A DNA stretch of 64,000 nucleotides from Pyrobaculum islandicum DSM 4184 (GTDB lineage: Archaea > Thermoproteota > Thermoprotei > Thermoproteales > Thermoproteaceae): the NCBI RefSeq assembly GCF_000015205.1, contig NC_008701.1, forward strand, positions 124,001 through 188,000, in the 5' to 3' direction. The position numbers and the translations under genes are program-made. The notes under the pieces are model-generated. The model was not told where the DNA came from. It searched no databases and worked only from the letters and a program-made list of their open reading frames with translations. Positions 1,779 through 50,313 of this stretch are shown piece after piece (the stretch's first letter is position 1; every line of letters begins with the position of its first letter).

Positions 1779-3149
1779 GTGGTAAAGTTCTACTCGAACA
1801 GGAGTTTTCCTGAAAAACGCAGTGCGGCGAACCATATCTTATTATGGAAGACAGACAGTATAGAAGAGGGGAGCGGACGGAAGAAGCGTAGCCGGAGACG
1901 CAAGAAGAACAGTGCAGAGAGGAAAGACGTGAAGAAGGTGTATGTTGTAACACACACCGTCGCCGTCCCCAGCCCGCGGCTGAGTTGGAGGAAGTTCAAT
2001 ACGCTGAAGGAGCTTGTGGAGAAGTATAGGGAGCTGGTCGTCCACCTCGTCGACTACGGCTTTAAACACGGCGTGACGGGACAGATCTCGCTCCGCAAGG
2101 CCCTGTATGAAGAACTGCGCAGAAGGCACCCCGACCTCCCATCCCACTACGTCTACACGGCGGCGCAGGACGCGGCCGCCCGCGTAAAGAGCTTTATGGC
2201 GCTGAAGCGGGAGGGAAAGGCGAAGACGGAAAAGCCAGAGATACGAAGGATCAGCATTTGGCTTGACGACCACCTCTGGATCCGCGAGGGCTTCACGGCG
2301 GTAAGGGTGTCGACGCACAGGGGGTGGGTCACGATTCCGCTTTGGCCCACCAGGCAGTTCTGGCGCCACATCAACGAGGGGTGGAGACTGAAGACACAGC
2401 CGAGGCTAAAGCTGGACGAGAAGAGGCGCATCGCCTACGTCTACTTCGTCTTTGAGAAGGTTGTGGAGGAGAAGCCGGCGAAGGGCGTTGTCTCCGTCGA
2501 CCTAAACGAGAACAACGTGGCTGTGAAGGCCGGCGGCAGGGTGTACATCCTTGAGACTGGGATCAGGGACATAACGCTCGGCTACAACAGCAGGAGAGAG
2601 GTCATGCAGTCTCTGAAAGGAAATAGGTACGTGAGCCGGGCGCTGAAGAAAAACGAACTGAACAAAAAGAACGACATCCGCAGAAAGGTAGCCAATTTCG
2701 TAGTCAGAGAGGCGGAGAGATTAGGCGCCGCAATAGCCGTCGAAAATCTGCCAAGGGAAGTGCCAAAAAACATGATCAAAAATGTAGATGATCCAAAGCT
2801 CAGAGATAGAATCTACAAAGCTGGATTTAGAAGTATGTTAAGAGAAATTATACAAAAGGCAAGGGAACACGGCATCCCGGTGATAAAGGTCGACCCGAGG
2901 GGTACCTCCTCCACCTGCCCGCGGTGTGGGGGGAGGTTGGTGAGGGGCCCTGCCCCGAGGCTCCTCCTCTGCCCCCACTGCGGGTGGGAAGGGGGGAGGG
3001 ACGTCGCCGCCGTCATAAACATCGAAAGGAGGGCACTCGAGGAGGGCCGCGTGCCGCCCGGCCCCATGCCCAATGACCCCACGCCCGAGGTATCTTGGAT
3101 ACCCATGACGGCGTGGGCGAGGAGAAAGTCCCTAGGCGCAATAGCCTAG
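1779..3149 (+). CDS. tnpB: TnpB, RNA-guided nuclease of IS200/IS605 (IS1341 type)
   Basis: The protein has the TnpB layout: an N-terminal nucleic-acid-binding part, a split RuvC core with D241 (SVDLNENNVAV), E322 (AVENLPR) and D408 (GGRDVAAVIN), and a four-cysteine zinc finger (C380, C383, C398, C401). All three catalytic acids are present, so it may be active as an omega-RNA-guided DNA endonuclease. The longest frame starts with GTG at 1779, but residues 1-50 are not TnpB-like; GTG at 1929 (VKKVYVVTH) is a more probable start. The stop codon lies within the right-end hairpin, so the 3' part of the gene and the presumed guide scaffold overlap. No tnpA is nearby. Confidence 0.88.
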   Translation: MVKFYSNRSFPEKRSAANHILLWKTDSIEEGSGRKKRSRRRKKNSAERKDVKKVYVVTHTVAVPSPRLSWRKFNTLKELVEKYRELVVHLVDYGFKHGVTGQISLRKALYEELRRRHPDLPSHYVYTAAQDAAARVKSFMALKREGKAKTEKPEIRRISIWLDDHLWIREGFTAVRVSTHRGWVTIPLWPTRQFWRHINEGWRLKTQPRLKLDEKRRIAYVYFVFEKVVEEKPAKGVVSVDLNENNVAVKAGGRVYILETGIRDITLGYNSRREVMQSLKGNRYVSRALKKNELNKKNDIRRKVANFVVREAERLGAAIAVENLPREVPKNMIKNVDDPKLRDRIYKAGFRSMLREIIQKAREHGIPVIKVDPRGTSSTCPRCGGRLVRGPAPRLLLCPHCGWEGGRDVAAVINIERRALEEGRVPPGPMPNDPTPEVSWIPMTAWARRKSLGAIA

Positions 3150-14698: not shown

Positions 14699-14742
14699 AT
14701 ATACCTTTAAAGATTATAAACAAATTACGACCGCGCCGTCTG

Positions 14743-14905
14743 TCCCTAGGCGCAACAGCCTAGGGACTTTCTCCTCGTCGTCATCGGCACCCACGGTACC
14801 TCAGGCGTGGTGCCGAGCGGCACGCGGCCCTCCGCGAATGCCCTCTTCTCGATGTTTACCACCGCGGCGATCCCCTCCCGCCTTAGGGTTTCAATCAGTT
14901 CCATG
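14743..14905 (-). pseudogene. TnpB 3'-end remnant (family of 1779-3149)
   Basis: The minus strand reads out a decayed tnpB end: frames with EGRVPLG, TPEV and a final RRKSLG, close to the C-terminus of the intact TnpB at 3149. It finishes in the same TCCCTAGGC/GCCTAGGGA right-end hairpin (14743-14766), preceded by CGCGCCGTCTG. The rest of the gene is missing. Confidence 0.7.
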
Positions 14906-15145
14906 AACTACTCCACCGTGAGGTATTGTTCTGTTTGGCCCATAGATATGTACGGCACGGGGAGAAAAGTCTGCACCTCGGCGGCTTATACACAAAGCCC
15001 AGACCGCGGCGCCGAAGCGTAAGACAATACGCCACACCGCCGGCCGAAGACGCCGATAACTATGGGCAGAGGTATCAAGAGCTAATAGAGAAGACAAACC
15101 CGCCCCGGCGACTACCTCACTTTTAACCCCCTAACTACTCCTCAT
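14906..15145 (+). pseudogene. TnpB C-terminal remnant of a second family
   Basis: The plus strand ends in a frame reading RYQELIEKTNPPRRLPHF and stop, matching the C-terminal RRYWELLEKAKQPTSP of other scars here (19870-19945, 26890, 17480). The preceding 150 bases (from GTGAGGTATT) are also shared with 19746 and 49548. Stops and frameshifts rule out function. The GC-rich right-end segment follows directly. Confidence 0.55.
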
Positions 15146-15307
15146 ACATGAACGACGTCTGGCCCCCGGGGCAGCAGACGGGGGTGCGAAGACAGATACA
15201 AAATAAACAACTAGCGGCCGGCCCCATATGACCCGCCCCCCGCCCCGGTGCACCCGAGGCGGGCCCTTAAGTCCCCCAGGGAGGGGCCAAGAAAAAGATA
15301 GGGGGAC
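15146..15307 (+). repeat. GC-rich structured right-end segment, copy A (candidate omega-RNA)
   Basis: This segment directly follows the TnpB C-terminal remnant and matches 49947-50110 closely along its length. It contains GC-rich inverted repeats, including GGGCCC ... GGGGCC around a CCCCC/GGGG core, and ends AAGATAGGGGGAC. Position and structure fit the right end and omega-RNA scaffold of an IS200/IS605 element, but transcription is not shown. Confidence 0.5.
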
Positions 15308-29099: not shown

Positions 29100-29762
29100 T
29101 TATTTTTTCTCTTCTACCCTCGCCCGACGCCAAGCAACAAAACCCAAAACAGCAAGAACGCCAGCAAGCGCAGCGCCTCCTGCTGTAGTTAATGATTTTA
29201 ACGTACTTCTCGTCTCTATAACGGCTTTTGTCCCCTCGTCTTCTGGCGGCTTAATGTATTCTCCCTTAGTAAATTTCTGTGATACCTCACTAGAGGGACT
29301 CTCTATATCTCCAAATACCAACGCGCCGGAGGGACAGACCTCTACACATACAGGTCTTAACCCCTCTGATACTCTTCTTAAACATTCAGACCCCATACAC
29401 TTCGCAGGTTTGTTATTTTTCTCATCCCACCACACCGCTCCATATGGACAAGCGGCTAAACAGTATCTACAGCCTATACAAGAGCTCTCCCGTAGTTTTA
29501 CTAAGCCATCTCTATCTTTATACAGAGCATTTGTAGGACATGTTGCAACGCAATACGGCTTATCGCAGTGTTGACAATAGACAAGATATAACGTTGGTTT
29601 AGGCCCTGATTTAACTTCGACCATTTTAATATCGCTTTTAAGCCACCCCCATACTTTATTCATTTCGCCGCTACTATTATAATTAGCTGCATTACATGCT
29701 GCAACACAAGCGCCACAAGCTACACATCTTGAGCGATCCCAGAGGAGGACTAGCCGCGTCAT
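29100..29762 (-). CDS. 4Fe-4S electron-transfer subunit (PhsB/FdhB type)
   Basis: Four cysteine clusters are visible: CVACGACVAAC, CQHCDKPYCVATC, CIGCRYCLAAC and the later CMGSEC/CVEVC groups, so it probably binds four 4Fe-4S clusters. A C-terminal helix (AGGAALAGVLAVLGFVAW) anchors it in the membrane. It links the molybdopterin subunit to the cytochrome b. Its ATG overlaps the stop of the catalytic subunit gene (ATGA). Confidence 0.88.
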   Translation of the reverse strand: MTRLVLLWDRSRCVACGACVAACNAANYNSSGEMNKVWGWLKSDIKMVEVKSGPKPTLYLVYCQHCDKPYCVATCPTNALYKDRDGLVKLRESSCIGCRYCLAACPYGAVWWDEKNNKPAKCMGSECLRRVSEGLRPVCVEVCPSGALVFGDIESPSSEVSQKFTKGEYIKPPEDEGTKAVIETRSTLKSLTTAGGAALAGVLAVLGFVAWRRARVEEKK

Positions 29763-32176
29763 AGCCTCCTCACCCTAACCGTGGCGTTGGTGGGGGCGGA
29801 CCCAACCACCGGCTCTATCTTCCCAGTGGCGAACCACTGCGGGTTAACGCCCTCCCTCAGCCAAGCGAAGTCGCCGTTAATAAAGCCAGATCTCCTGCCT
29901 CCTATGAAGGAATACGTGAAGAGAACCCCCTCCCTAACTCTATTTGTCACTTTGACTCTAGCCACAGCTTTAAAACCTGTGTCGATACCCTCGAGCTCTA
30001 CCACATCGCCGTCTCTTATACCCAGACGTTCCGCATCTTTTGGATTCATCCAGACAGATCTATCGGCGAGGAACCTGGCGTTTGGCGTAAAGGCGAAGTG
30101 TGCAGAAACCACCTGGTCCTTCCCGTTGACTAGGTAGAACTCGTTGGGAGCTTTCGGCGGGGTATACAGCGGAGGTCTATAGTCGGGGAGCGGGTCGAGG
30201 CCGTATTTAAGCGCAGTGAGAGAGTATATCTCCACCAAGCCAGTGGGCGTGCCGAGCTTCGTCTTGTAGGGCCTAACGCCGTACTCCTTGCGCTTCAGTA
30301 CCACGAACCCCTTCTCCTCTAGTTGCCGCTTGATCTCGTCCAGCGGCATCTTAAACGCGTCGGCCACCTTCTTCAGTGCGGCTTCCACCAGCTGTCTCTC
30401 CCACTCCTCAAAGGCGTGGGGGTCGGCATATCTCTCGTCGTAGCCAACAAGCTTAGCCCTCTCCGGGAAGGCCCTTCTCACGATCTCCATCAAGATCCAT
30501 GGAGCATGTCTGGCGTCTACGCCCGGCGGCGGGTCGAGAGCCTTATGTGACATCTGGATAGCAGCGTGGAGAGTCCACTTAACGACCGCCACCTCCTCCC
30601 TCTCTAGAAACATAAGATCGGGGAGGATGTAGTGGGCGTAGTCCACATGGTCATGCGGAAAGATGTCGATCGCAACTACCAGCTCCAATTTCTTTAACGC
30701 CTCCACCGCCCTCTGGTAGTTGGTATCTCTCTGTAGAGGGGCGGTCCCAACTATAAACAGCGCCTTTATATTCTCTCCAGCTAAAATTGCGTCATACACT
30801 GCGTTAAACGTCGAAACAGCTAGCGGGTATTTTGATGTATCTATTCTCTTGGCAGTCGGCCTAGGTATTTTCATGCCGGTAACTGTCACAATGTCAGGTC
30901 CCACGGGGTCACACACATTTGGGTACTTAGCTGACTCTTGGAAACAAAGGCCGCCTTGTTTATCTATGTTGCCAACTAAGGCGTTTAAGATGAGGACTAG
31001 GCGGTATGTATCAAATTCATTGCCATTTCTTGAGGTATACCATCCATCTTCAATAACGCCCTTGTTTTTTGCAAACTCTTCTGCAATTTTAGTAATTATC
31101 TCAGCCGACACTCCTGTAATTTCAGAAGCCTTCTCGGGCGGGTATTTAGAAACACGTTCTCTAAACAGCTCGAAGACGGTCTTAGCCCCGCCTAGCCTCT
31201 GTCTTACCTCGTCTGTAAGCTCAAGAGCGGGGTCCTTTGCTTTTCCAAGCGGCGCCAGTGCTTGTGTCGCGTTATCCCACACGACGTAGTCTGCCTCAAC
31301 ACCTATCTCCTTGCCTCCCAGAGGTTTGCCATCTGGCTTTATTAACATAGGCGCGTTCGTATAAAACTTAAGAAATTCTACATCATACAACTTCTTTGAA
31401 ATTATCACATAGGCCATAGAGGCTAGAAAAACAGCATCGGTCCCAGGAATAATCGGCACCCATTCCACAGCGCCAAAGGCAATGTTAGGAGCTCTAGGAT
31501 CTATAACAACGATCTTTGCCCCCCTCTCTCTAGCCTTGGCTAAACTCCTCACATGTCCCATAGCTGCATCTAAAACACGGCCTAGCAACACTAGATATTT
31601 TACATTTCCATAATCGGGATCTACCGTCGGAGGCCCGCTCGCACCTAACACAGCCCTTCTCGCCGCCGTCGAGGCGGAGTGACACGTCCCCTCGTGGCCT
31701 ATGAGATTCGGCGTTCCGATCAACGCGGCGAAGAGTGGGAGGAACCAGGAGTGGACGTCGTGTCTCGTGATGACCACGCTCTCGGGGCCGTACTTCGAAA
31801 CGATGTCCTTAAGCTTCGCCGCGATTTCGTTCAAGGCCGTGTCCCAGTCGACCTCCACGAAGCCGCTCTCGACACGTTTCAAAGGCCTCTTGAGACGGAG
31901 GGGGTGGTTCCACATCTGAAGTGCCGAAGCCGCTCTTGCGCATAGGCCAGGCGATGGGTGTCCAGAGTTGGGTAATAAATAACGGCGGCCCCCCCGCTCT
32001 ATATATAAGAGACCACAACCTGCGCCACATGCCCCACACATAACGGGAACCACTTTTTCAAAAGTCAACGAGCTAGTTGTCTCATGTATACTTCCATATG
32101 TAAATACGCCAAGTGTAGAAGTTGTAATTAAAGTTGTCGCAGAGAGTTTTATAAAGTCGCGCCTATTAGTCGACAT
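29759..32176 (-). CDS. Molybdopterin oxidoreductase catalytic subunit, thiosulfate/polysulfide reductase-like
   Basis: The 805-residue protein begins with a twin-arginine signal (NRRDFIKLSATTLI), so it is exported. C47, C50, C54 and C79 bind the first 4Fe-4S cluster, and C165 in HEGTCHSAS is the likely molybdenum or tungsten ligand. C-terminal bis-MGD binding features (FTPNARFLADRSVWMNPKDA) follow. With a four-cluster subunit and a cytochrome b in the operon it resembles PhsABC thiosulfate reductase or formate dehydrogenase; the dsr context favours thiosulfate or polysulfide. Substrate cannot be fixed by sequence alone. Confidence 0.85.
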   Translation of the reverse strand: MSTNRRDFIKLSATTLITTSTLGVFTYGSIHETTSSLTFEKVVPVMCGACGAGCGLLYIERGGRRYLLPNSGHPSPGLCARAASALQMWNHPLRLKRPLKRVESGFVEVDWDTALNEIAAKLKDIVSKYGPESVVITRHDVHSWFLPLFAALIGTPNLIGHEGTCHSASTAARRAVLGASGPPTVDPDYGNVKYLVLLGRVLDAAMGHVRSLAKARERGAKIVVIDPRAPNIAFGAVEWVPIIPGTDAVFLASMAYVIISKKLYDVEFLKFYTNAPMLIKPDGKPLGGKEIGVEADYVVWDNATQALAPLGKAKDPALELTDEVRQRLGGAKTVFELFRERVSKYPPEKASEITGVSAEIITKIAEEFAKNKGVIEDGWYTSRNGNEFDTYRLVLILNALVGNIDKQGGLCFQESAKYPNVCDPVGPDIVTVTGMKIPRPTAKRIDTSKYPLAVSTFNAVYDAILAGENIKALFIVGTAPLQRDTNYQRAVEALKKLELVVAIDIFPHDHVDYAHYILPDLMFLEREEVAVVKWTLHAAIQMSHKALDPPPGVDARHAPWILMEIVRRAFPERAKLVGYDERYADPHAFEEWERQLVEAALKKVADAFKMPLDEIKRQLEEKGFVVLKRKEYGVRPYKTKLGTPTGLVEIYSLTALKYGLDPLPDYRPPLYTPPKAPNEFYLVNGKDQVVSAHFAFTPNARFLADRSVWMNPKDAERLGIRDGDVVELEGIDTGFKAVARVKVTNRVREGVLFTYSFIGGRRSGFINGDFAWLREGVNPQWFATGKIEPVVGSAPTNATVRVRRL

Positions 32177-32346
32177 TGGAAAAGAGGGTTGTCATAGTTT
32201 TAAAAAATTTATTACTTTTATATCCGAAAGAATATTGTACATAAGTTATACATCAATTACAAAATATAAATAAAGAGTACAAGAGATATAAAAACTGTAC
32301 AATACGTATAAACGAAAAGAATTTATATAAAGAGCTAAATTAACCT
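32177..32346. promoter_or_regulatory. Divergent promoter region with TGTACA motifs
   Basis: Between the molybdoenzyme operon and a wHTH gene lies an A/T-rich region. A TATA box ATTTATATAA (32321-32330) serves the plus-strand gene; on the minus strand AATAAATTTTTTAAAAC serves the other. TTGTACA occurs at 32235 and CTGTACAAT at 32295, candidate operator sites. Confidence 0.45.
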
Positions 32347-32874
32347 ATGCTTGGACTTATTAGATATTTTTGGCAAGACCTCATGCCCCCTCTGCCGGAT
32401 GGGTGGCGCCCCGTGCTGAAGAGATACGTAGAGCGTTGGCCCAAGCCGCTTACCCCATACGCCGTGGCAAAAGAGGTGGAGTTAAGCACTTCTGCCGTCT
32501 ACCGCGCCGTCTATGCCCTCGCCAAAAATCGCTTGATCCTCCCGGCAGGCAGAGGCTACCAAGCCACAGTGAAGGGAGCCATAGCTCTCCTTGTAGAAGA
32601 GGAAGACCCCCGCTGGCTTGACGCAGTTAGAAAGATCTGGGGGATAGGGATAGACGACACAACCGCAACGTTTTACCTAGCCGCGCTTGGGGCCGCAATA
32701 CGGAAGCTGGGCTTTACTATAAGAGAAGCATATATATGCAACTGGGTTGCCAGCCAAGCCTATATAATAACTCAGCTCGACCGTCTGAGGCTACCTTCCG
32801 CGGTAGAAGAGACGATAAAACCGCTACTAAAGTTTCCAGAAGGGACACACCACAGCTGTAGTAGATATAAATAA
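32347..32874 (+). CDS. Winged-helix regulator next to the molybdoenzyme operon
   Basis: Residues 20-80 are a winged helix (KRYVERWPKPLTPYAVAKEV, ELSTSAVYRAVYALAKNRLI, PAGRGYQATVKG). The C-terminal 90 residues resemble the same region of the regulator at 44063 (shared layout, with ATFYLAALGAAIRKLGF here). Divergence from the molybdoenzyme operon and TGTACA repeats in the shared promoter suggest local control. Start and TATA box agree. Confidence 0.65.
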   Translation: MLGLIRYFWQDLMPPLPDGWRPVLKRYVERWPKPLTPYAVAKEVELSTSAVYRAVYALAKNRLILPAGRGYQATVKGAIALLVEEEDPRWLDAVRKIWGIGIDDTTATFYLAALGAAIRKLGFTIREAYICNWVASQAYIITQLDRLRLPSAVEETIKPLLKFPEGTHHSCSRYK

Positions 32875-32890
32875 TAACTTTTTCCTAATT

Positions 32891-33457
32891 GTGTCTAGAT
32901 CTACAGTACCAGTAGAGGGAGATGTAGCTAGAGAAGTGGCGTCTCTAGCAAAAAGCCACGGATTTTCGGTTGTTAGACTAGCTACAGACTCTCTTAAATT
33001 AGCTATAGAGTTGATGAAACGAGGTGTAACACCGGTAAACGCTCTTGAGATGTATAAACTACTTGAAAAAATAATAGCATTTGACGTAGTGCCAGTCCCC
33101 CTTTCCTTCCTCGAACTTCTAGCTAAAAAGTGGGATATCTGTAACAACCCTGAGATAGAACACTATCTGAAAGAAATTGGGGAGAAATTTGGCAAAACTC
33201 TCCTCTCCGAGTTTAAAAACTTTAACGAATTTGTAAGAGTAGCGTCTCTTCTCTTTGCACAATTTCCCACCACTCGTTTTACAATTAATAAAACAGGCAA
33301 TGTTTGGAGAATATATTTTGCACCAGCCGGCCCCCTTTCAGCTAGGTGTCTCGCCCGCTTCGCCGAAGAGGTAATCAAGCAGTTTGGATGTGTAACAAAG
33401 ACACAATATAATCCAGTAATTGCTGCAGAAGTAGAATGTCCGGGAAAAACATTATAA
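32891..33457 (+). CDS. Uncharacterised protein, RHH-like N-terminus (paralog 1)
   Basis: A GTG-started protein of 188 residues. The first 60 residues (VPVEGDVAREVASLAKSHGF, RLATDSLKLAIELMKRGVTP) look like a strand-helix-helix fold of ribbon-helix-helix type. The C-terminal part has FTINKTGNVWRIYFAPAGPL and several cysteines. It shares its architecture and the ending-domain pattern with the next gene, so the two are paralogs. I do not recognise a named family. The context suggests a regulator tied to sulfur respiration. Confidence 0.55.
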   Translation: MSRSTVPVEGDVAREVASLAKSHGFSVVRLATDSLKLAIELMKRGVTPVNALEMYKLLEKIIAFDVVPVPLSFLELLAKKWDICNNPEIEHYLKEIGEKFGKTLLSEFKNFNEFVRVASLLFAQFPTTRFTINKTGNVWRIYFAPAGPLSARCLARFAEEVIKQFGCVTKTQYNPVIAAEVECPGKTL

Positions 33458-33476
33458 CCTCTGTACAATTTCTGAC

Positions 33477-33929
33477 ATGGTTAGAGAATATTCACGTCTT
33501 GCACTCAGGAAAGACTTAGCCGAAGAATTCTACCGCGCAGTGAAAAACTTGGGGAGAAAACCTAGCGAAGTATTGGAGTTTATAATACAAGCCGCAGTAG
33601 ATTCAATAAACCACGGCGTAGACCCCATAGATATGGTTCACATATGTCGCCTAGCGAGAAGCCTAGGCCTTGGCCGAGGCGGCTATGAAGTTGGCAAAGA
33701 GGCTGGAGTCCTCCTAAGAGCCTACTACAGCCCAGAGGAGTTTCTCGAAATACTAACAAGAGTCGGGCCTAAGGTATTTCATGCAAATAGAGTAGGGCCG
33801 AACGCCTTCCGTGTTAACAATGCAACAATTAGAGAAACATTAAGGGGTGTACTAGAGGGCATTGGATACAAAGTTAGAGTAGAGGGAGATATGGTTTTCT
33901 TAGACAACGTTCCCGAATATACCAAGTAA
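33477..33929 (+). CDS. Uncharacterised protein, RHH-like N-terminus (paralog 2)
   Basis: The 150-residue protein starts MVREYSRLALRKDLAEEFYR, with RKPSEVLEFIIQAAVDSINH and GVDPIDMVHICRLARSLGL, parallel to the same section of the preceding gene (RGVTPVNALEMYKLLEKI). A C-terminal domain with NAFRVNNATIRETLRGVLEG follows. A TGTACA motif lies 10 nt upstream of the ATG, so it may be regulated separately. Function is unknown. Confidence 0.55.
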   Translation: MVREYSRLALRKDLAEEFYRAVKNLGRKPSEVLEFIIQAAVDSINHGVDPIDMVHICRLARSLGLGRGGYEVGKEAGVLLRAYYSPEEFLEILTRVGPKVFHANRVGPNAFRVNNATIRETLRGVLEGIGYKVRVEGDMVFLDNVPEYTK

Positions 33930-44062: not shown

Positions 44063-44665
44063 ATGGCATATGAAACTCTCGACCATTTTACAATTAAAAT
44101 TTTAGACACTGTACTTAGCGAGGAGCTTAGGGGAGAGCCGGGTTTAACGCCATATCAAATAATGCGGAAACTTGGAGTGTACCCCTCCTTCCTCTATAAA
44201 AATATCAAAGTCTTAGAAAGACGTAACTATCTAGTCTGTAAAGAGGCGGGGAGAGGTAAAATATGTTCAACAACAGTTGGCGGGTTGTTAGCTTTTCTAA
44301 AAGTTGTAAAAGACTACGACAAGTATGTGTATCTATTCTTTAGAAAGCTGGGTTTTGGCTCTCCTCCTATGGATTTGAGAGATGCAAAAACACTCCTCTC
44401 ACTTATTATAGACGGTGGTACAACTCCAAAAGATATTTACGATTTGTTTGTATGGAGTCTTCTACATTGTGAAAATAGTGTTGTAGCTAAATTTTTAAAA
44501 GCGCTCTCGGGCGTTTTGGGTATTACGTTAGTAATGACGCCGCATATGGTGTATGTAAAAAGGAATGGCACGGAGATTTGTACATGTAGGTATAGTAACT
44601 GTGGACTTGAAATGTGTAAGTTAAAATTGGCGGTGAGAGAATTTTTGGAGATTCAAAAAAGCTAA
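44063..44665 (+). CDS. Winged-helix regulator
   Basis: Residues 1-80 form a winged helix (PGLTPYQIMRKLGVYPSFLY, NIKVLERRNYLVCKEAG). The rest is helical and ends with cysteines in CTCRYSNCGLEMCKL, which may bind a metal or sense redox state. TTGTACAC at 43980-43987 lies in the promoter. The 3' end overlaps the convergent dsrK2 by 4 bases. It is similar in layout to the regulator at 32347, so both may control sulfur genes. Confidence 0.65.
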   Translation: MAYETLDHFTIKILDTVLSEELRGEPGLTPYQIMRKLGVYPSFLYKNIKVLERRNYLVCKEAGRGKICSTTVGGLLAFLKVVKDYDKYVYLFFRKLGFGSPPMDLRDAKTLLSLIIDGGTTPKDIYDLFVWSLLHCENSVVAKFLKALSGVLGITLVMTPHMVYVKRNGTEICTCRYSNCGLEMCKLKLAVREFLEIQKS

Positions 44666-46266
44666 GATTTCTTTTCTTTAAGAAAGTCTAGATAGGGCTC
44701 TTTTAAGTCAACCATGGCGTTTACTATTAGTTCTACTAAGCCTCCGTAATGGATATTATAGAGCTCGGTGGCTCTGTAGTGAGCTAATACGTCTCTGATA
44801 GCGCCTTTACAATTGGAACAAGGCGCACATACATACTTCGGTATTTTTGGATCTAATACATCTTTGAATGCTTCTAGTATCTGTTTAAACTTCATCCTGC
44901 TGGCAACTTTATTTCTCCATTCGGGGAAGTTTAACGACTGCATTATCGCAAACCCACTTCCACCGCCACAACAATAGTTATACACGCCATGTGGCACCAT
45001 CTCTCTAAACATAGGTGCTATTTTCCTTAAGATCTCTCTCTGCGGCTCTACAATACCTGAAAGCCTCACTATGTTACATGGGTCGTGTAGAGTCACAGGA
45101 AAGTTGTTTTTCGAGGGGTCTAAGTTCAGCTTGTTGCTCATGACGATATCTCTCAACAGTGGCAGAGCGCTTTCCCGCGGTATTCTGTTCTCGTCTGTGA
45201 GTATTCTGTCTGCAACCACAACGAGAGCTTTAGTGGCGTGTCCACACTCTCCTACTACTATCTTCTTAACTTCAAGCTTGCGGGCGATTTCTATATGTTT
45301 TAGAGCTATTCTAGCTAACTGTACGTCGTCGTACCATGCGCCGTAGTTAACTACGTCGTATCCCAGAGGCTCGCTACTTAACGTCCAGCTTAAGCCCGCC
45401 TCTTCGAATATTATGGCGAAGGCAGCGACGTTCTCAGGCCAGGATAGAAATTCGCCGGCGTTGTGGATTAATAATATGTCTGCACCTTTCTGGTCGACGG
45501 GTATTTTTATCCTCTTGCCGGTTTTTTCGTATATGAAGTCTTCTATGTATTTCACCATTTTTAACAACGCCTTGGGTGTCATTCCTGTTGATGAGCCTAC
45601 TTTTAGGTGTTGTACTGTGCCTTTTTCGTGGAGATTTTTCGGAGCTATGCCAAGTTCTTGGGAGAATAATTTTCTTATCTCTCTTGCGATCAAGCCGTTG
45701 TCTATGCCAAGCGGACACACTTGGACACAACGTCTACATAAGGTACATCTATATGCCAGTTCAGCAAGTCTCATCAAGGTGAATATATTTAGTTCTATAT
45801 CTCCTCCGGGTTTTTTAGCTATGTACTTATTGTATATCCTCCGCAGAACCTCTGCTCTATATGTCGGCCTATAGATATCTTTCCTGCCGCTGGCTATATA
45901 TATGGGGCATGCCTCTGCACAGTTTTGACATTTTGCACAGTATTCTAGTGATAGGAGTAGCGGTTGGAGAAACGTCCAGTTGCTCTCTCTAGAAGTCAGC
46001 TTTTTCAGCCCTTCGAGAAACTTCTGTATAAGTCTCTCCTCTTCTTCTTTAGTCTTCGGCTTCCACGGCAGATCTATAGCAATATAGCCGTCAAGCTCTG
46101 TTACATAGGTTTCTTCCCACTCTGGCTTTGGCGTTGTTAAGGGGGGCTCTGAGCCTGACTTGTCGTAGGGCGGCGGGAGGGGCATTAAATCTTCTAGCTT
46201 TAGTTGAACTAGCCTTTTGACCGGTTTGCTTATATCGTTGATCTTAACTACTTCCTTACGGCTCAT
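44662..46266 (-). CDS. dsrK: DsrK/HdrD-like Fe-S protein (second copy)
   Basis: The ATG at 46266 overlaps the dsrM2 stop (ATGA), fixing the start; the product has 534 residues. It contains CAKCQNCAEACP and CTLCRRCVQVCP, then CCG domains with YNCCGGGSGF and a final APCSNCKGAIRD. It is longer than DsrK1 by an N-terminal extension of about 90 residues with PLPPPYDKSGSEPP. With DsrM2 it forms a classical DsrMK pair that would reduce DsrC trisulfide using quinol. Confidence 0.9.
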   Translation of the reverse strand: MSRKEVVKINDISKPVKRLVQLKLEDLMPLPPPYDKSGSEPPLTTPKPEWEETYVTELDGYIAIDLPWKPKTKEEEERLIQKFLEGLKKLTSRESNWTFLQPLLLSLEYCAKCQNCAEACPIYIASGRKDIYRPTYRAEVLRRIYNKYIAKKPGGDIELNIFTLMRLAELAYRCTLCRRCVQVCPLGIDNGLIAREIRKLFSQELGIAPKNLHEKGTVQHLKVGSSTGMTPKALLKMVKYIEDFIYEKTGKRIKIPVDQKGADILLIHNAGEFLSWPENVAAFAIIFEEAGLSWTLSSEPLGYDVVNYGAWYDDVQLARIALKHIEIARKLEVKKIVVGECGHATKALVVVADRILTDENRIPRESALPLLRDIVMSNKLNLDPSKNNFPVTLHDPCNIVRLSGIVEPQREILRKIAPMFREMVPHGVYNYCCGGGSGFAIMQSLNFPEWRNKVASRMKFKQILEAFKDVLDPKIPKYVCAPCSNCKGAIRDVLAHYRATELYNIHYGGLVELIVNAMVDLKEPYLDFLKEKKS

Positions 46267-47171
46267 AGCCCTGCTGCGTTTTTCTCCCATGTTTCTCCTG
46301 ACCTTATGTGAGGCGCCGACCACCTCAATGGGAGTTTTAAAAGTTCACTTACTCTGCCGTCTAACTGGCCTGTGTTAGGCTCATCGTCCCAAAGAATTTT
46401 GTGATATGTGAAGTATTTTCCTATGAAGTGTGTTATTTTAGAGAACGGTATATATACGAGAAGTAGTTGTATTAGTGCTATATTCACCGTTGTTATAGTG
46501 GGTAGGGGCGGGGGTTGTGAAAATGTAACTAGGCTTAGCATAAACTTTCTAGCTAAGTCAAAGGCAGGGTCGTAAATCCAAGCGGCTAGGCCTGTGGCTA
46601 CAGTTATTAACACTAGGACTGTGTTTAAATAATCGGGCCAAGTTGTATAGTCTCTCAGCACGGGATCTGACAGTCTTCTAATGAGAAGCCCTATGCCACC
46701 TATTATTGTCATTATGGCGCCTAGACCGCCGGTTATCAACGTGACATAGTATAAGAAGTACGCCCAGGGGTTGCTTGAAGGTATTTGCACACCTAGTGAC
46801 ATAATTATCGCACTGAGGAAAAGCGCAAGGAACCACACTAATATTAAGTATATTCCGAAATGGAAAAACCATGATAAAAACCATAGTCTCTTATTCATTA
46901 GGTATATTCTTTTTATAAAGAGCATTTCTTCTAACATTTCTTTTAGCTCTCCTATTTTTGTAACTTCGCGTGTTTTTTTAGCCCAGTCGACTTCTTCTAG
47001 GTAGCTACCGCCGTATTCAGCTTTTTTCTCATGTGGAACTGGATATAGCTCCCATCTGAGATGGATAGGCATAGAGGCCCAACGACTCCATTTATATATG
47101 ATGCCTATTATAAATATTGTAAATGTTATATATGATGTGTAAAATATTATTGATTCTATATTATATGACAT
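46263..47171 (-). CDS. dsrM: DsrM/NarI-like cytochrome b membrane protein (second copy)
   Basis: A 302-residue protein with about six helices: FYTSYITFTIFIIGIIY, FLSWFFHFGIYLILVWFLAL, GGLGAIMTIIGGIGLL and IALIQLLLVYIPFSKITHF. Histidines in FFHFG and KITHFIG are likely heme ligands. It is the first gene of the dsrM2-dsrK2 operon. A 54-bp piece of this gene (46429-46482) occurs exactly at 49469-49522 within a TnpB scar. Confidence 0.85.
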   Translation of the reverse strand: MSYNIESIIFYTSYITFTIFIIGIIYKWSRWASMPIHLRWELYPVPHEKKAEYGGSYLEEVDWAKKTREVTKIGELKEMLEEMLFIKRIYLMNKRLWFLSWFFHFGIYLILVWFLALFLSAIIMSLGVQIPSSNPWAYFLYYVTLITGGLGAIMTIIGGIGLLIRRLSDPVLRDYTTWPDYLNTVLVLITVATGLAAWIYDPAFDLARKFMLSLVTFSQPPPLPTITTVNIALIQLLLVYIPFSKITHFIGKYFTYHKILWDDEPNTGQLDGRVSELLKLPLRWSAPHIRSGETWEKNAAGL

Positions 47172-47279
47172 TACGGACTCTCTTTATTTAAAGATAAAAA
47201 TATTATTACACAAATTTATGAAACTGTTGTTACTGCAGTCAGTGTAACAAATTCTTATAATAGAAGACTCGAAGTTTAT

Positions 47280-48623
47280 GTGATCCCGCGTGTAGTTATC
47301 TCATCTTTCAGAGGTATGTCTGGGAAGACTATTATCTCTCTTGCATTGATATATGGTCTCTTTAGGCAGGGGCTTAGAGTTGCCCCCTTTAAGGTTGGGC
47401 CTGACTATATCGACCCGAGCTACCACACAGCGGCGGCGGGGAGGCCCAGCAGAAACCTCGACGTGGTGTTGATGGGAGAGAGGGGGGTGGTGGAGCGTTT
47501 TGTAAAATTTTCAAGAGGCGCAGACATTGCCGTTGTGGAGGGCGTGTTAGGCCTCTACGACTCCTTCGACGGCGTTTCTGAGCTCGGCTCCACGGCGCAG
47601 GTGGCTAAGCTGTTGAAAGCTCCTGTTTTGTTAGTGTTAAACGGGGAGAGAGTAAATAGAACTCTTAGGGCTATCGTTAGGGGGTTAAGGCAGTTTGACC
47701 CCGAGATTAAAATCCCGGGAGTAGTTTTAACAAACGTCACTAGGAGTCAGGCGGAGAAGCTGAAGAAGTCCCTCCCCGAGGAGGGGGTGGAGGTGTTGGG
47801 CGCAGTGCCTAAGAGTGAGAAGTTGGCAGAGGTATTTTCCTATAGACATCTCGGCCTTACGCCAGTGGGCGAAAGAGGGGATGTCCCCCGTATTTTTGAA
47901 GTTGTTGAAAAATATGTGTTGCCGTATATAGATTTAGATGGCGTTATTGCTATTGCCAAATCTGCCGGCGATTTTGCAGTAGATATTAAAGAAGAAGATC
48001 CTGGGGGCTTGGGCGGGTGTAGAATTGGGATTGTGTTTGATAGAGCTTTTACCTTCTACTACCCCGAGGTCTTCGAGGAGGCTAAGTCGCTGGGAGAGGT
48101 GGTGTTTTTAGACTCGCTGAAGATGCAAGAGTTGCCTCAAGTAGACGTGGTTTTTATAGGCGGGGGCTTTCCTGAATCTCTAGCAGAAGAGTTAGAACGT
48201 AACAAACCGTTTAAATCCTCGTTGTTGAAATTTATAGAGCGGGGGGGCAAGGTATATGCCGAATGCGGTGGCCTTATGTATCTTACCTCTTCTATAGTGG
48301 TAGAGGGCTCGGAGTACGAGATGGTTGGCGCGATAGACGGCATAACAGTTATGATGAAGAGACCGGTAGGGAAGGGATACGCTTGGGGCGTGGTGGAGAG
48401 GAGGACGCCTATAGCCCCTCCGGGGACTAGGCTTGTGGGACACGAGTTTCATTACTCCAAGATTATCCTCAGGGAGGAGGTAGAGACCGCTATAAGGCTG
48501 GAGAGGGGGGTTGGAATCGGCGGCGGTAGAGACGGCATTGTAAAGGGCAATATGCACGCACAATATCTCCATATACATCCCTACACCTACAGCGTGTTGA
48601 GGACGCTATGCCGCTCTACGTAG
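47280..48623 (+). CDS. dsrN: CbiA-type a,c-diamide synthase; likely DsrN (siroheme amidase)
   Basis: The 447-residue protein has the CbiA/CobB form: an N-terminal P-loop (SSFRGMSGKTIISL), KVGPDYIDPSYHTAA and a class I glutamine amidotransferase domain with the nucleophile in KVYAECGGLMYL and the partner VGHEFHYS. In sulfur bacteria the homolog DsrN makes siroamide for DsrAB, which fits the dsr neighbourhood here; a cobalamin role is also possible, but no other cobalamin gene is visible. The start is GTG with an upstream TTCTTATAATAG box. It overlaps the methyltransferase gene by 16 bases. Confidence 0.8.
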   Translation: MIPRVVISSFRGMSGKTIISLALIYGLFRQGLRVAPFKVGPDYIDPSYHTAAAGRPSRNLDVVLMGERGVVERFVKFSRGADIAVVEGVLGLYDSFDGVSELGSTAQVAKLLKAPVLLVLNGERVNRTLRAIVRGLRQFDPEIKIPGVVLTNVTRSQAEKLKKSLPEEGVEVLGAVPKSEKLAEVFSYRHLGLTPVGERGDVPRIFEVVEKYVLPYIDLDGVIAIAKSAGDFAVDIKEEDPGGLGGCRIGIVFDRAFTFYYPEVFEEAKSLGEVVFLDSLKMQELPQVDVVFIGGGFPESLAEELERNKPFKSSLLKFIERGGKVYAECGGLMYLTSSIVVEGSEYEMVGAIDGITVMMKRPVGKGYAWGVVERRTPIAPPGTRLVGHEFHYSKIILREEVETAIRLERGVGIGGGRDGIVKGNMHAQYLHIHPYTYSVLRTLCRST

Positions 48624-49276
48624 TGGGGGCAGGCCCTGGCGACCCTAAGTTATTGACTATTAGAGCTAGAGAGCTACTTGAGGAAGCCGACGTGGTGGCA
48701 TATGGCGACCTCGTGCCAGAGGAGGTGGTGAAAATCGCCAAGAAGGCGCGTGTTGTAAAAATTGGCCATAGGAGAGTGGAACACGACGCCGCTATAGAAG
48801 CTCTAATTGAAGAAGCGCGGTGGAGAAACGTAGTGATTTTAAAAAACGGCGATCCCACAATATTTGGGAGGGGGGTCAAGGTGTGTAAAATGGCAAGAGA
48901 GAGGGGGGTGCCCTGCGAAATTGTGCCTGGCGTCAGCTCTTTTACAGCCGCGGCCGCCCTCTTCCAGATAGAGCTTACAGACGGCGAAAATCTTAGACAT
49001 ATAGCTCTGTTGTCATATCCACATTTCTCAGCTGACATACTTAGAGAAATAAAGGCAGACACTCTGGTTATATTTATGATGGGAGATAAACTACAAGAGG
49101 TGAGCCAGGTGTTAGCTCAGGTCTGTAACCCAGAGAGAGTATACCTCTGCGTCGGAGTGTCCCTAGGCGGCTATTGCGAAGAAGTCTCCCCTGAGGTTTT
49201 AGGAGAAAAGAAAGGCCTACGACCAACTCTTGTCATAGTACAGAGATGTACATCTTCAAAGAGTATAAAAATGTAA
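48608..49276 (+). CDS. Uroporphyrinogen-III/precorrin methyltransferase-family protein (SUMT-like)
   Basis: The 222-residue protein has the SUMT/CobA family start YVVGAGPGDPKLLTIRAREL and the P-GV motif (IVPGVSSFTAAAAL), with LKNGDPTIFGRG where SUMT has GGDPFIFGRG. It could be the siroheme uroporphyrinogen-III methyltransferase or a cobalamin-type precorrin methyltransferase; coupling to DsrN favours siroheme. ATG lies inside the preceding gene. Confidence 0.75.
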   Translation: MPLYVVGAGPGDPKLLTIRARELLEEADVVAYGDLVPEEVVKIAKKARVVKIGHRRVEHDAAIEALIEEARWRNVVILKNGDPTIFGRGVKVCKMARERGVPCEIVPGVSSFTAAAALFQIELTDGENLRHIALLSYPHFSADILREIKADTLVIFMMGDKLQEVSQVLAQVCNPERVYLCVGVSLGGYCEEVSPEVLGEKKGLRPTLVIVQRCTSSKSIKM

Positions 49277-49468
49277 CCCTCACAGAGTTAGGCAAATTGC
49301 CTAGAGACGGTCTATAGCCCTCTGTCCCTAGGTGCTTATCGCCAATGACACGCCTAGGAACTTCCTCCTCGCTCACGCAGTCATGAGCACCCAGGGTGTC
49401 TTGGGCGTGGGGCCGGGCGGCACACTGCCCTCCGCGGGCGCCCTCTTTTTGATGATTATCATGGCGGC
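49277..49468 (-). pseudogene. TnpB 3'-end remnant (family of 1779-3149)
   Basis: A decayed tnpB end on the minus strand with the right-end sequence TCCCTAGG ... CGCCTAGGAA (49325-49358) and a frame like EGSVPPGPTPKTPWVLMTA. A longer loop separates the stem arms than in other copies. Confidence 0.6.
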
Positions 49469-49522
49469 TGTGTTATTTTAGAGAACGGTATATATACGAG
49501 AAGTAGTTGTATTAGTGCTATA
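49469..49522 (+). repeat. 54-bp exact copy of part of dsrM2
   Basis: Every base equals 46429-46482, an internal part of the dsrM2 gene on the same window strand. It sits between TnpB remnants, where copies at 14870-14920 and 19710-19745 have unrelated sequence. Being identical, it is likely recent. Confidence 0.9.
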
Positions 49523-49669
49523 AACTTTACAAACTGTTTCACAGTGAGGTATTGGGTTTGGCCCATGTCCACACGTGACGCGGAGGAGAAAAGTTAGAAA
49601 CATACTTTCAACTACTTCGGTTCACCTGCCTGACAGCGACGACGTGAGACAGGTGAGTCGAAAGAGTGG
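49523..49669. other. TnpB-element scar
   Basis: ACAGTGAGGTATTGGGTTTGG and the following bases are shared with 14920-14945 and 19746. No coding potential is visible. Confidence 0.45.
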
Positions 49670-49933
49670 ATGGCGCTGACTCTATCATACTCTCCGCCAA
49701 ACTTGGCTGAATTCGGTGAATTCGAGACTGTTTTGTGTCTGCTACCGCTTTTCATTTCGCCTTTTGTGCCCATCGTTGCGTTCGATATACTTGCGCTACC
49801 CTTTGCCACAATTTTAGAAATTGACCAAACCAACGACGCTAGAGTGGCAATCATGGGTCTGATGGCCATCACAAGCGTCTCTGTGGTCAGCAACCTCAGA
49901 GCGCATAGAGACATCACATTTTTAACCTCGTAA
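49670..49933 (+). CDS. Small two-helix membrane ORF, fused at its end to TnpB debris
   Basis: The 87-codon frame has hydrophobic stretches ETVLCLLPLFISPFVPIVAF and ARVAIMGLMAITSVSVVS. The end NLRAHRDITFL resembles the TnpB end FRAHRDNVSV in its frame, so the natural C-terminus was probably lost. No promoter is obvious. It may be a degraded gene. Confidence 0.3.
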   Translation: MALTLSYSPPNLAEFGEFETVLCLLPLFISPFVPIVAFDILALPFATILEIDQTNDARVAIMGLMAITSVSVVSNLRAHRDITFLTS

Positions 49934-49946
49934 GTACTTCTCACCC

Positions 49947-50110
49947 ATGAACGGCATCTACTTGGCCCCTGGGGCGGCTGACGGGGCGCGCAAAGTGATA
50001 CGGAACAAACGACCAGCGGCCGGCCCCCGGTGAGCCGCCCCCTCGCCCCGGTGTACCGGGGGCGGGCCCTTAAGTCCCCCGGGGAGGGGCCAAGAGAGAG
50101 ATAGGGGGAC
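49947..50110 (+). repeat. GC-rich structured right-end segment, copy E (candidate omega-RNA)
   Basis: Nearly the same as copy A at 15146-15307: CATGAACGGCATCT, the GCGGCCGGCCCC region, GGGCGGGCCCTTAAGTCCCC and AAGAGAGAGATAGGGGGAC. It follows TnpB C-terminal debris. Confidence 0.5.
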
Positions 50111-50220
50111 AACCTACTCCACCCGCACCACAGGCAAGTGGTGTAGTTTGCCGCCAGTTAACCATGTCAAGATAGCGCCGAGACGGAGTTAAACCTTATA
50201 TGTTGCAAGACTTGTGGTAT

Positions 50221-50313
50221 GTTTCGGCGTCTTTTTGTTTCCTATAGGAAACAGTTTCTGCAGAATGTTGTTTCTCGCGAGAAACAAATTTTAATTAGAG
50301 TATATACTACTTT
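50221..50313 (+). promoter_or_regulatory. Promoter of the DUF4143 ATPase with two perfect palindromes
   Basis: TGTTTCCTATAGGAAACA (50236-50253) and TTGTTTCTCGCGAGAAACAA (50268-50287) share the half-site TGTTTC; their centres lie 33 bp apart, about three helical turns. The second abuts AAATTTTAATT (about 50285-50295), a likely TATA box 20-25 nt before the GTG at 50314. Confidence 0.65.

What the first reader, a model, noticed from the sequence alone, without database searches (positions are those of the whole stretch)
49469..49522. 54-bp exact copy of dsrM2 inside a TnpB scar
Bases 49469-49522 equal 46429-46482 of dsrM2 without a mismatch, in the same window orientation. In other scars of this type the site holds unrelated sequence. 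Perfect identity implies a recent event such as templated filler DNA during repair of a TnpB-type break. If the scar is transcribed on the plus strand it would give an RNA perfectly complementary to the dsrM2 message; this is a speculation.
Basis: partly seen in the sequence, partly recalled or inferred. Interest (0 to 1): 0.6.

Follow-up and report, generated by a model that had tools for sequence, protein, structure and literature searches.

The report
Copied gene snippet at transposon break
A 54-base piece of a nearby respiratory gene has been copied, letter for letter, into the broken edge of a dead tnpB transposon piece in a hyperthermophilic archaeon, and a second, independent 71-base example elsewhere in the same genome suggests that broken DNA here is sometimes patched by copying whatever lies close by.

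Summary
The match ends sharply on both sides, and these are the only two copies in the 1.83-Mb genome. The source is in-frame in a DsrM-like gene and is conserved in the nearest relative (52/54), so copying went from gene to scar. The copy sits flush between the 5' break of a truncated tnpB 3' end (49350-49468, minus strand) and the first 14-16 codons of a small repeat-family gene (from about 49520).

I screened the 5' edges of 40 tnpB remnants against 6.5 kb on each side. Thirty-eight gave no exact match of 15 nt or more. The other positive is a 71-bp exact, direct copy of an ATPase gene 510 bp away, flush with the break of another tnpB remnant; the nearest relative has a near-empty site there. 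Best reading: templated filler, local copying while a broken tnpB end was joined.

A TnpB-made break is not shown: the join lies inside the tnpB coding end. The antisense-RNA idea has no support, since both remnants flanking the copy read on the minus strand and would give a sense copy. "Recent" means only that less than about 5.4% divergence has accumulated.

The parts
46429..46482 (-). Donor: 54 bp inside the DsrM-like gene (ORF 46263-47171, minus strand)
   Evidence: Exact match to 49469-49522; ORF; Pfam Nitrate_red_gam; conserved 52/54 in relative G004
49350..49468 (-). Remnant A: 3' coding end plus right-end hairpin of a 5'-truncated tnpB; homology to other copies stops at 49468
   Evidence: Alignment to the intact tnpB at 1779-3149 (+) and to many truncated copies; intact copy is guided_TnpB
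49469..49522 (.). Templated copy of the DsrM-like gene (filler); the last 3 bases could also belong to remnant B
49520..49680 (-). Remnant B: start (ATG at 49566-49564) and upstream palindromic region of a small repeat-family gene
   Evidence: 88% identical to longer copies in L009 and L015; the L009 ORF has a DUF1122 domain
49459..49566 (-). Chimeric 35-residue ORF: 16 codons of remnant B, then the DsrM-like segment in its own frame; probably accidental
49912..50112 (+). Remnant C: 3' end of a second tnpB family, about 30 copies in the genome
14740..15307 (.). Sister scar with the same A, B and C parts, A and B joined directly without the 54 bp

Best explanation
The 54 bp are templated filler DNA. 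When the broken 5' end of a truncated tnpB piece was joined to neighbouring DNA, a DNA 3' end or a stalled fork switched to the nearby DsrM-like gene, copied 54 bases, and switched back or was ligated. Shown: exact one-way copying from a single-copy gene 3 kb away, same orientation, flush at a tnpB break, and a second independent case of the same layout. Inferred: that the copying happened during the joining itself, by end joining or replicative template switching. Candidate machinery, by analogy only, is the crenarchaeal replicative primase PriSL, which anneals strands across a few G:C pairs, extends them and supports microhomology end joining in Saccharolobus (PMC12019639). The insert most likely has no function.
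For: Exact, sharply bounded, two copies in the genome. Donor direction fixed by the conserved gene in G004. Flush with the point where remnant A stops matching its paralogues and with the start of remnant B. The donor is local: 3,040 bp away in a 1.83-Mb genome, about 0.3% by chance (donor search genome-wide). Second case: 71 bp, 510 bp away, flush with the break of a tnpB-C remnant, with remnant and patch absent from G004. Zero exact matches of 15 nt or more at the other 38 remnant edges. Shared TTTTC and a 12-bp stutter at the host-side join of the second case. Crenarchaeal precedent for error-prone microhomology repair.
Against: Element-side joins look blunt in both cases, with no clear microhomology, and in ours the donor flank shares nothing with remnant A. 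Ancestral junctions are known only from diverged paralogues. Two positives in 40 is a small number. No archaeal experiment known to me shows 50-70 bp templated inserts. Raw reads not checked.
Confidence: 0.72

Rival explanations
1. Stub of a larger tandem duplication: 46429-49468 (3,040 bp) was duplicated in tandem, so that the second copy began exactly at 49469, and all but its first 54 bp was later deleted up to remnant B.
For: The copy starts at the base right after 49468, as a tandem duplication would give; exact identity; same orientation.
Against: Needs two events, with the second ending exactly at remnant B. Any local direct patch shows this arithmetic. The second case sits upstream of its donor, so the same arithmetic does not apply there.
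Confidence: 0.12
2. Capture of a free DNA fragment of the DsrM-like gene (breakdown product or incoming DNA from a relative) at a break, by double illegitimate recombination.
For: Joins without clear microhomology. The dsrK/dsrM block is unusually similar between the two species (third-position divergence 2-4% against 35-40% in the next genes), which could mean recent DNA import near this site.
Against: The copy carries this genome's allele at both positions that differ from G004; the second case involves an unrelated gene; both donors are local.
Confidence: 0.1
3. A selected antisense or sense RNA against the DsrM-like message.
For: Perfect complementarity if the plus strand is transcribed; a TATA-like TATAAAAA at 49264-49271 (+).
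Against: Both remnants flanking the copy read on the minus strand; no conservation (the scar is absent from G004); flush at a break like a second, unrelated patch.
Confidence: 0.03
4. Assembly or cloning artefact.
For: Reads were not available.
Against: Single-contig genome, 99.95% complete; the insert is flush at a meaningful junction, and a second similar case exists.
Confidence: 0.03

Closest known systems
Templated insertions (filler DNA) at end-joining junctions, polymerase-theta-type, in plants and animals (e.g. PMC5217109)
   Same: Short exact copy of nearby DNA at a junction that also lost sequence
   Different: Archaeon, thought to lack polymerase theta and Ku (my knowledge); patches of 54 and 71 bp at transposon breaks; element-side joins look blunt
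Crenarchaeal primase PriSL-mediated microhomology end joining (PMC12019639)
   Same: Hyperthermophilic crenarchaeon; error-prone joining with annealing, terminal transfer and strand extension
   Different: Reported products there are mostly 1-2 bp indels; long local copies are not described in the passages read
Double illegitimate recombination of DNA fragments in Acinetobacter (cited in PMC4437187)
   Same: Short DNA segment inserted without homology at the ends
   Different: There incoming DNA during transformation; here the donor is the local chromosome
IS200/IS605- and IS607-associated TnpB elements and their truncated remnants
   Same: Both tnpB families at the locus belong to guided TnpB / Cas12f-like proteins
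   Different: The 54 bp are not part of the element and do not lie at the omega-RNA guide side; they lie at the 5' break

Membership tests
Templated insertion (filler DNA) at a rearrangement junction | Inserted sequence matches a donor elsewhere, donor left intact | tested here: met
   54/54 match, donor gene intact and conserved in G004
Templated insertion (filler DNA) at a rearrangement junction | Insert lies exactly at a junction between two sequences not adjacent before | tested here: met
   Between the 5' break of tnpB remnant A and the start of gene remnant B
Templated insertion (filler DNA) at a rearrangement junction | Microhomology at the template-switch points | tested here: inconclusive
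   Element side blunt; host side 0-4 nt in ours (ancestor uncertain) and TTTTC in the second case
TnpB-induced break repair | Junction at an element end, empty donor site or omega-RNA target | tested here: not met
   Junction lies inside the tnpB 3' coding end
Part of the tnpB element | Same sequence at other copies of the element | tested here: not met
   Two genomic copies only
Antisense RNA gene | Plus-strand transcription across the copy | not testable with these tools
   No RNA-seq; remnants flanking the copy read on the minus strand

The most novel reading that the evidence does not exclude
The many 5'-truncated, right-end-retaining tnpB pieces in this archaeon arise, at least partly, by one-ended insertion (as with 5'-truncated LINE elements): the right end is placed in the target and the free 5' end is closed by copying nearby DNA. 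The 54- and 71-bp patches are the youngest traces of this. Support: in the second case the truncated piece plus patch is absent from the relative and both flanking genes are kept, so it looks inserted already truncated; two other remnants also have near-empty sites there.
Probability: 0.2. Interest if true: 0.65.

Novelty: new member of a known kind. Interest (0 to 1): 0.42.

Why it matters
Templated insertions are a signature of alternative end joining in eukaryotes. Crenarchaea are thought to lack the bacterial Ku/LigD and eukaryotic polymerase theta machineries (my own knowledge), and a 2025 paper calls archaeal break repair unclear (PMC12019639). Two natural, exact, local patches at transposon breaks in a hyperthermophile give examples of such repair and a testable link to how truncated tnpB pieces form. 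The effect on the host is probably nil.

Tried and rejected
(1) 54 bp as part of the element or a shared repeat: rejected, two copies genome-wide. (2) 54 bp as an omega-RNA guide: rejected, guides lie beyond the right end (left of 49350), while the copy lies at the opposite, 5' side. (3) Virus-borne or widespread sequence: no exact match in viral contigs (21-mer) or GTDB genomes (35-mer) (own and near genomes may be left out there); no plasmid match to the scar. (4) Off-target CRISPR spacer integration: no duplicated target flanks seen on inspection; not pursued further. (5) Copies at other scar junctions from anywhere in the genome: two pooled searches found only repeat-family matches, but only 40 candidates were scored each time, so small copies could be missed. 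(6) Decayed local copies at other remnants: blastn gave only weak or element-derived matches. (7) The 103-bp pair 528908/532079 is an element-derived duplication, not a host-gene patch.

Full report
OBSERVATION. Window 49469-49522 and 46429-46482 are identical over 54 bp, in direct orientation, and the match does not extend by a single base on either side. In the whole genome (one contig, 1,826,402 bp; window = 124001-188000) only these two places match. A chance match of this length is out of the question (BLAST E = 3.6e-21 in the genome).

DIRECTION. The segment at 46429-46482 is in-frame coding sequence of a membrane subunit (Pfam Nitrate_red_gam; DsrM-like but below the NCBIfam equivalog cut-off) next to a DsrK-like gene. 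G004 has the same gene with 52 of 54 bases identical. The scar copy carries this genome's allele at both differing bases. So the gene is the donor, and the copy was most likely made in this lineage.

ANATOMY OF THE SCAR. 49350-49468 (minus strand) is the 3' end of a tnpB gene plus its right-end hairpin, homologous to the intact tnpB at 1779-3149. Homology to other copies stops at 49468. From about 49520 rightwards lies the start (minus strand) of a small repeat-family gene and its upstream palindromic region, 88% identical to longer copies (L009, L015). Further right is the 3' end of a second tnpB family on the plus strand (49912-50112), present about 30 times in the genome. The 54 bp fill the gap between the first two exactly. 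A sister scar at 14740-15307 has the same three parts, with the first two joined directly. On the minus strand the insert continues the small gene's reading frame, giving a 35-residue chimeric ORF; with a one-in-six chance for strand and frame, no weight is put on this. In G004 the interval between the two flanking genes holds a MntR-like regulator and an NRAMP-type transporter ORF instead (judged by eye), so no clean empty site exists there.

HOW OFTEN. I collected 40 edges of 5'-truncated tnpB remnants (26 of family A, 14 of family C) and compared about 100 bases beyond each 5' break with about 6.5 kb on each side. Thirty-eight gave no exact match of 15 bases or more. Two gave long exact matches: ours (54 bp, 3,040 bp away) and genome 1032575-1032645 (71 bp, 510 bp away), both direct and both flush with the break. 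A scan of 515.6 kb for exact repeats of 28 bp or more with unrelated flanks found the same two as the only host-gene patches at tnpB breaks. That sample is centred on remnants, so it does not measure how common such patches are elsewhere.

THE SECOND CASE. A 140-bp remnant of a family-C tnpB (genome 1032437-1032576, minus strand) is followed without a gap by 71 bases copied from an ATPase-like gene whose source starts at 1033085. In G004 the two conserved flanks are only 43 bp apart (81406 to 81450) where this genome has 268 bp; remnant and patch are absent and both flanking genes are kept. So remnant and patch look like one insertion. At the host-side join there is a shared TTTTC and a 12-bp stutter (TTTTCAGTGATA twice), as expected from template switching.

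MECHANISM. Best reading: copying of nearby DNA while a broken tnpB end was joined. Shown: one-way exact copying, local donor, flush position at a tnpB break, two independent examples. Inferred: that copying occurred during joining, and by which enzymes. A plausible machinery in Crenarchaeota is replicative primase PriSL, which anneals strands over a few G:C pairs, extends across discontinuous templates and promotes error-prone break repair in Saccharolobus islandicus (PMC12019639); this is an analogy, not a test. Joins on the element side look blunt in both cases, which argues against a strict microhomology rule, but the ancestral junctions are known only from diverged paralogues.

WHAT IS NOT SUPPORTED. 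The junction lies within the tnpB coding end, so there is no evidence that TnpB made the break. The copy is on the opposite side from where an omega-RNA guide would be. The antisense suggestion lacks support: remnants A and B, which flank the copy, both read on the minus strand and would give sense RNA; the only plus-strand hint is TATAAAAA at 49264-49271. Identity over 54 bases bounds neutral divergence to below about 5.4% (95%); it does not prove a very recent event. The local clock is unreliable, because third-position divergence from G004 runs from 2-4% (dsrK/dsrM block) to 35-40% (next genes).

VERDICT. A real, small, well-resolved mutational fossil of a known kind (templated insertion), now with a second example in the same genome and the same position relative to a tnpB break. 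Of moderate interest for archaeal break repair and for the origin of truncated tnpB pieces; there is little reason to expect a function.

Noticed in passing
genome C1 1032437-1032645 (L026 1501-1709; L136): Second templated patch: 71-bp exact direct copy of an ATPase-like gene (source 1033085-1033155), flush with the break of a tnpB-C remnant; near-empty site in G004.
   Followed up: yes
L063 1500-1793, L095, L002 1230-1471; G004 L070, L066: Several tnpB-A 3' ends stand alone (no tnpB) behind a shared upstream stretch with a TTAAATA-type box, like stand-alone omega-RNA genes. L063 scores 25 bits over the full length of Rfam HgcC (gathering 50, E 0.02).
   Followed up: partly
L063 1804-1867 (-): Rfam PyrR209 H/ACA-type sRNA directly beside a stand-alone tnpB-A remnant.
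   Followed up: no
window 29762-33926 and 44063-47171 against 47280-49276: Divergence from G004 is mosaic: third-position differences 2-7% in some blocks (including dsrK/dsrM), 35-40% in the cobB/cbi genes next door. Suggests recombination between lineages.
   Followed up: partly
window 49277-50223; G004 L056: Where this genome has the tnpB scars, G004 has a MntR-like regulator and an NRAMP-type transporter ORF.
   Followed up: no
genome C1 1792179-1792769 and 1793819-1794409 (L139): 591-bp perfect inverted repeat, 1.64 kb apart, within two long coiled-coil-type ORFs.
   Followed up: no
genome C1 528908-529010 and 532079-532181 (L089, L106): 103-bp exact direct copy, 3,171 bp apart, of a tnpB-A 3' end; the family is otherwise 70-95% identical, so a young local duplication.
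   Followed up: partly
genome C1 707837-707977 (L117): A 71-bp exact repeat at a spacing of 70 bp (tandem duplication) within a gene-like stretch.
   Followed up: no
genome C1 973206-973417 (L097): A tnpB-A remnant whose last 55 bp are 98% identical to the reference tnpB and 54 bp exact to the copy at 1722794, while its upstream part is only 81% identical: a patch from a distant paralogue.
   Followed up: no
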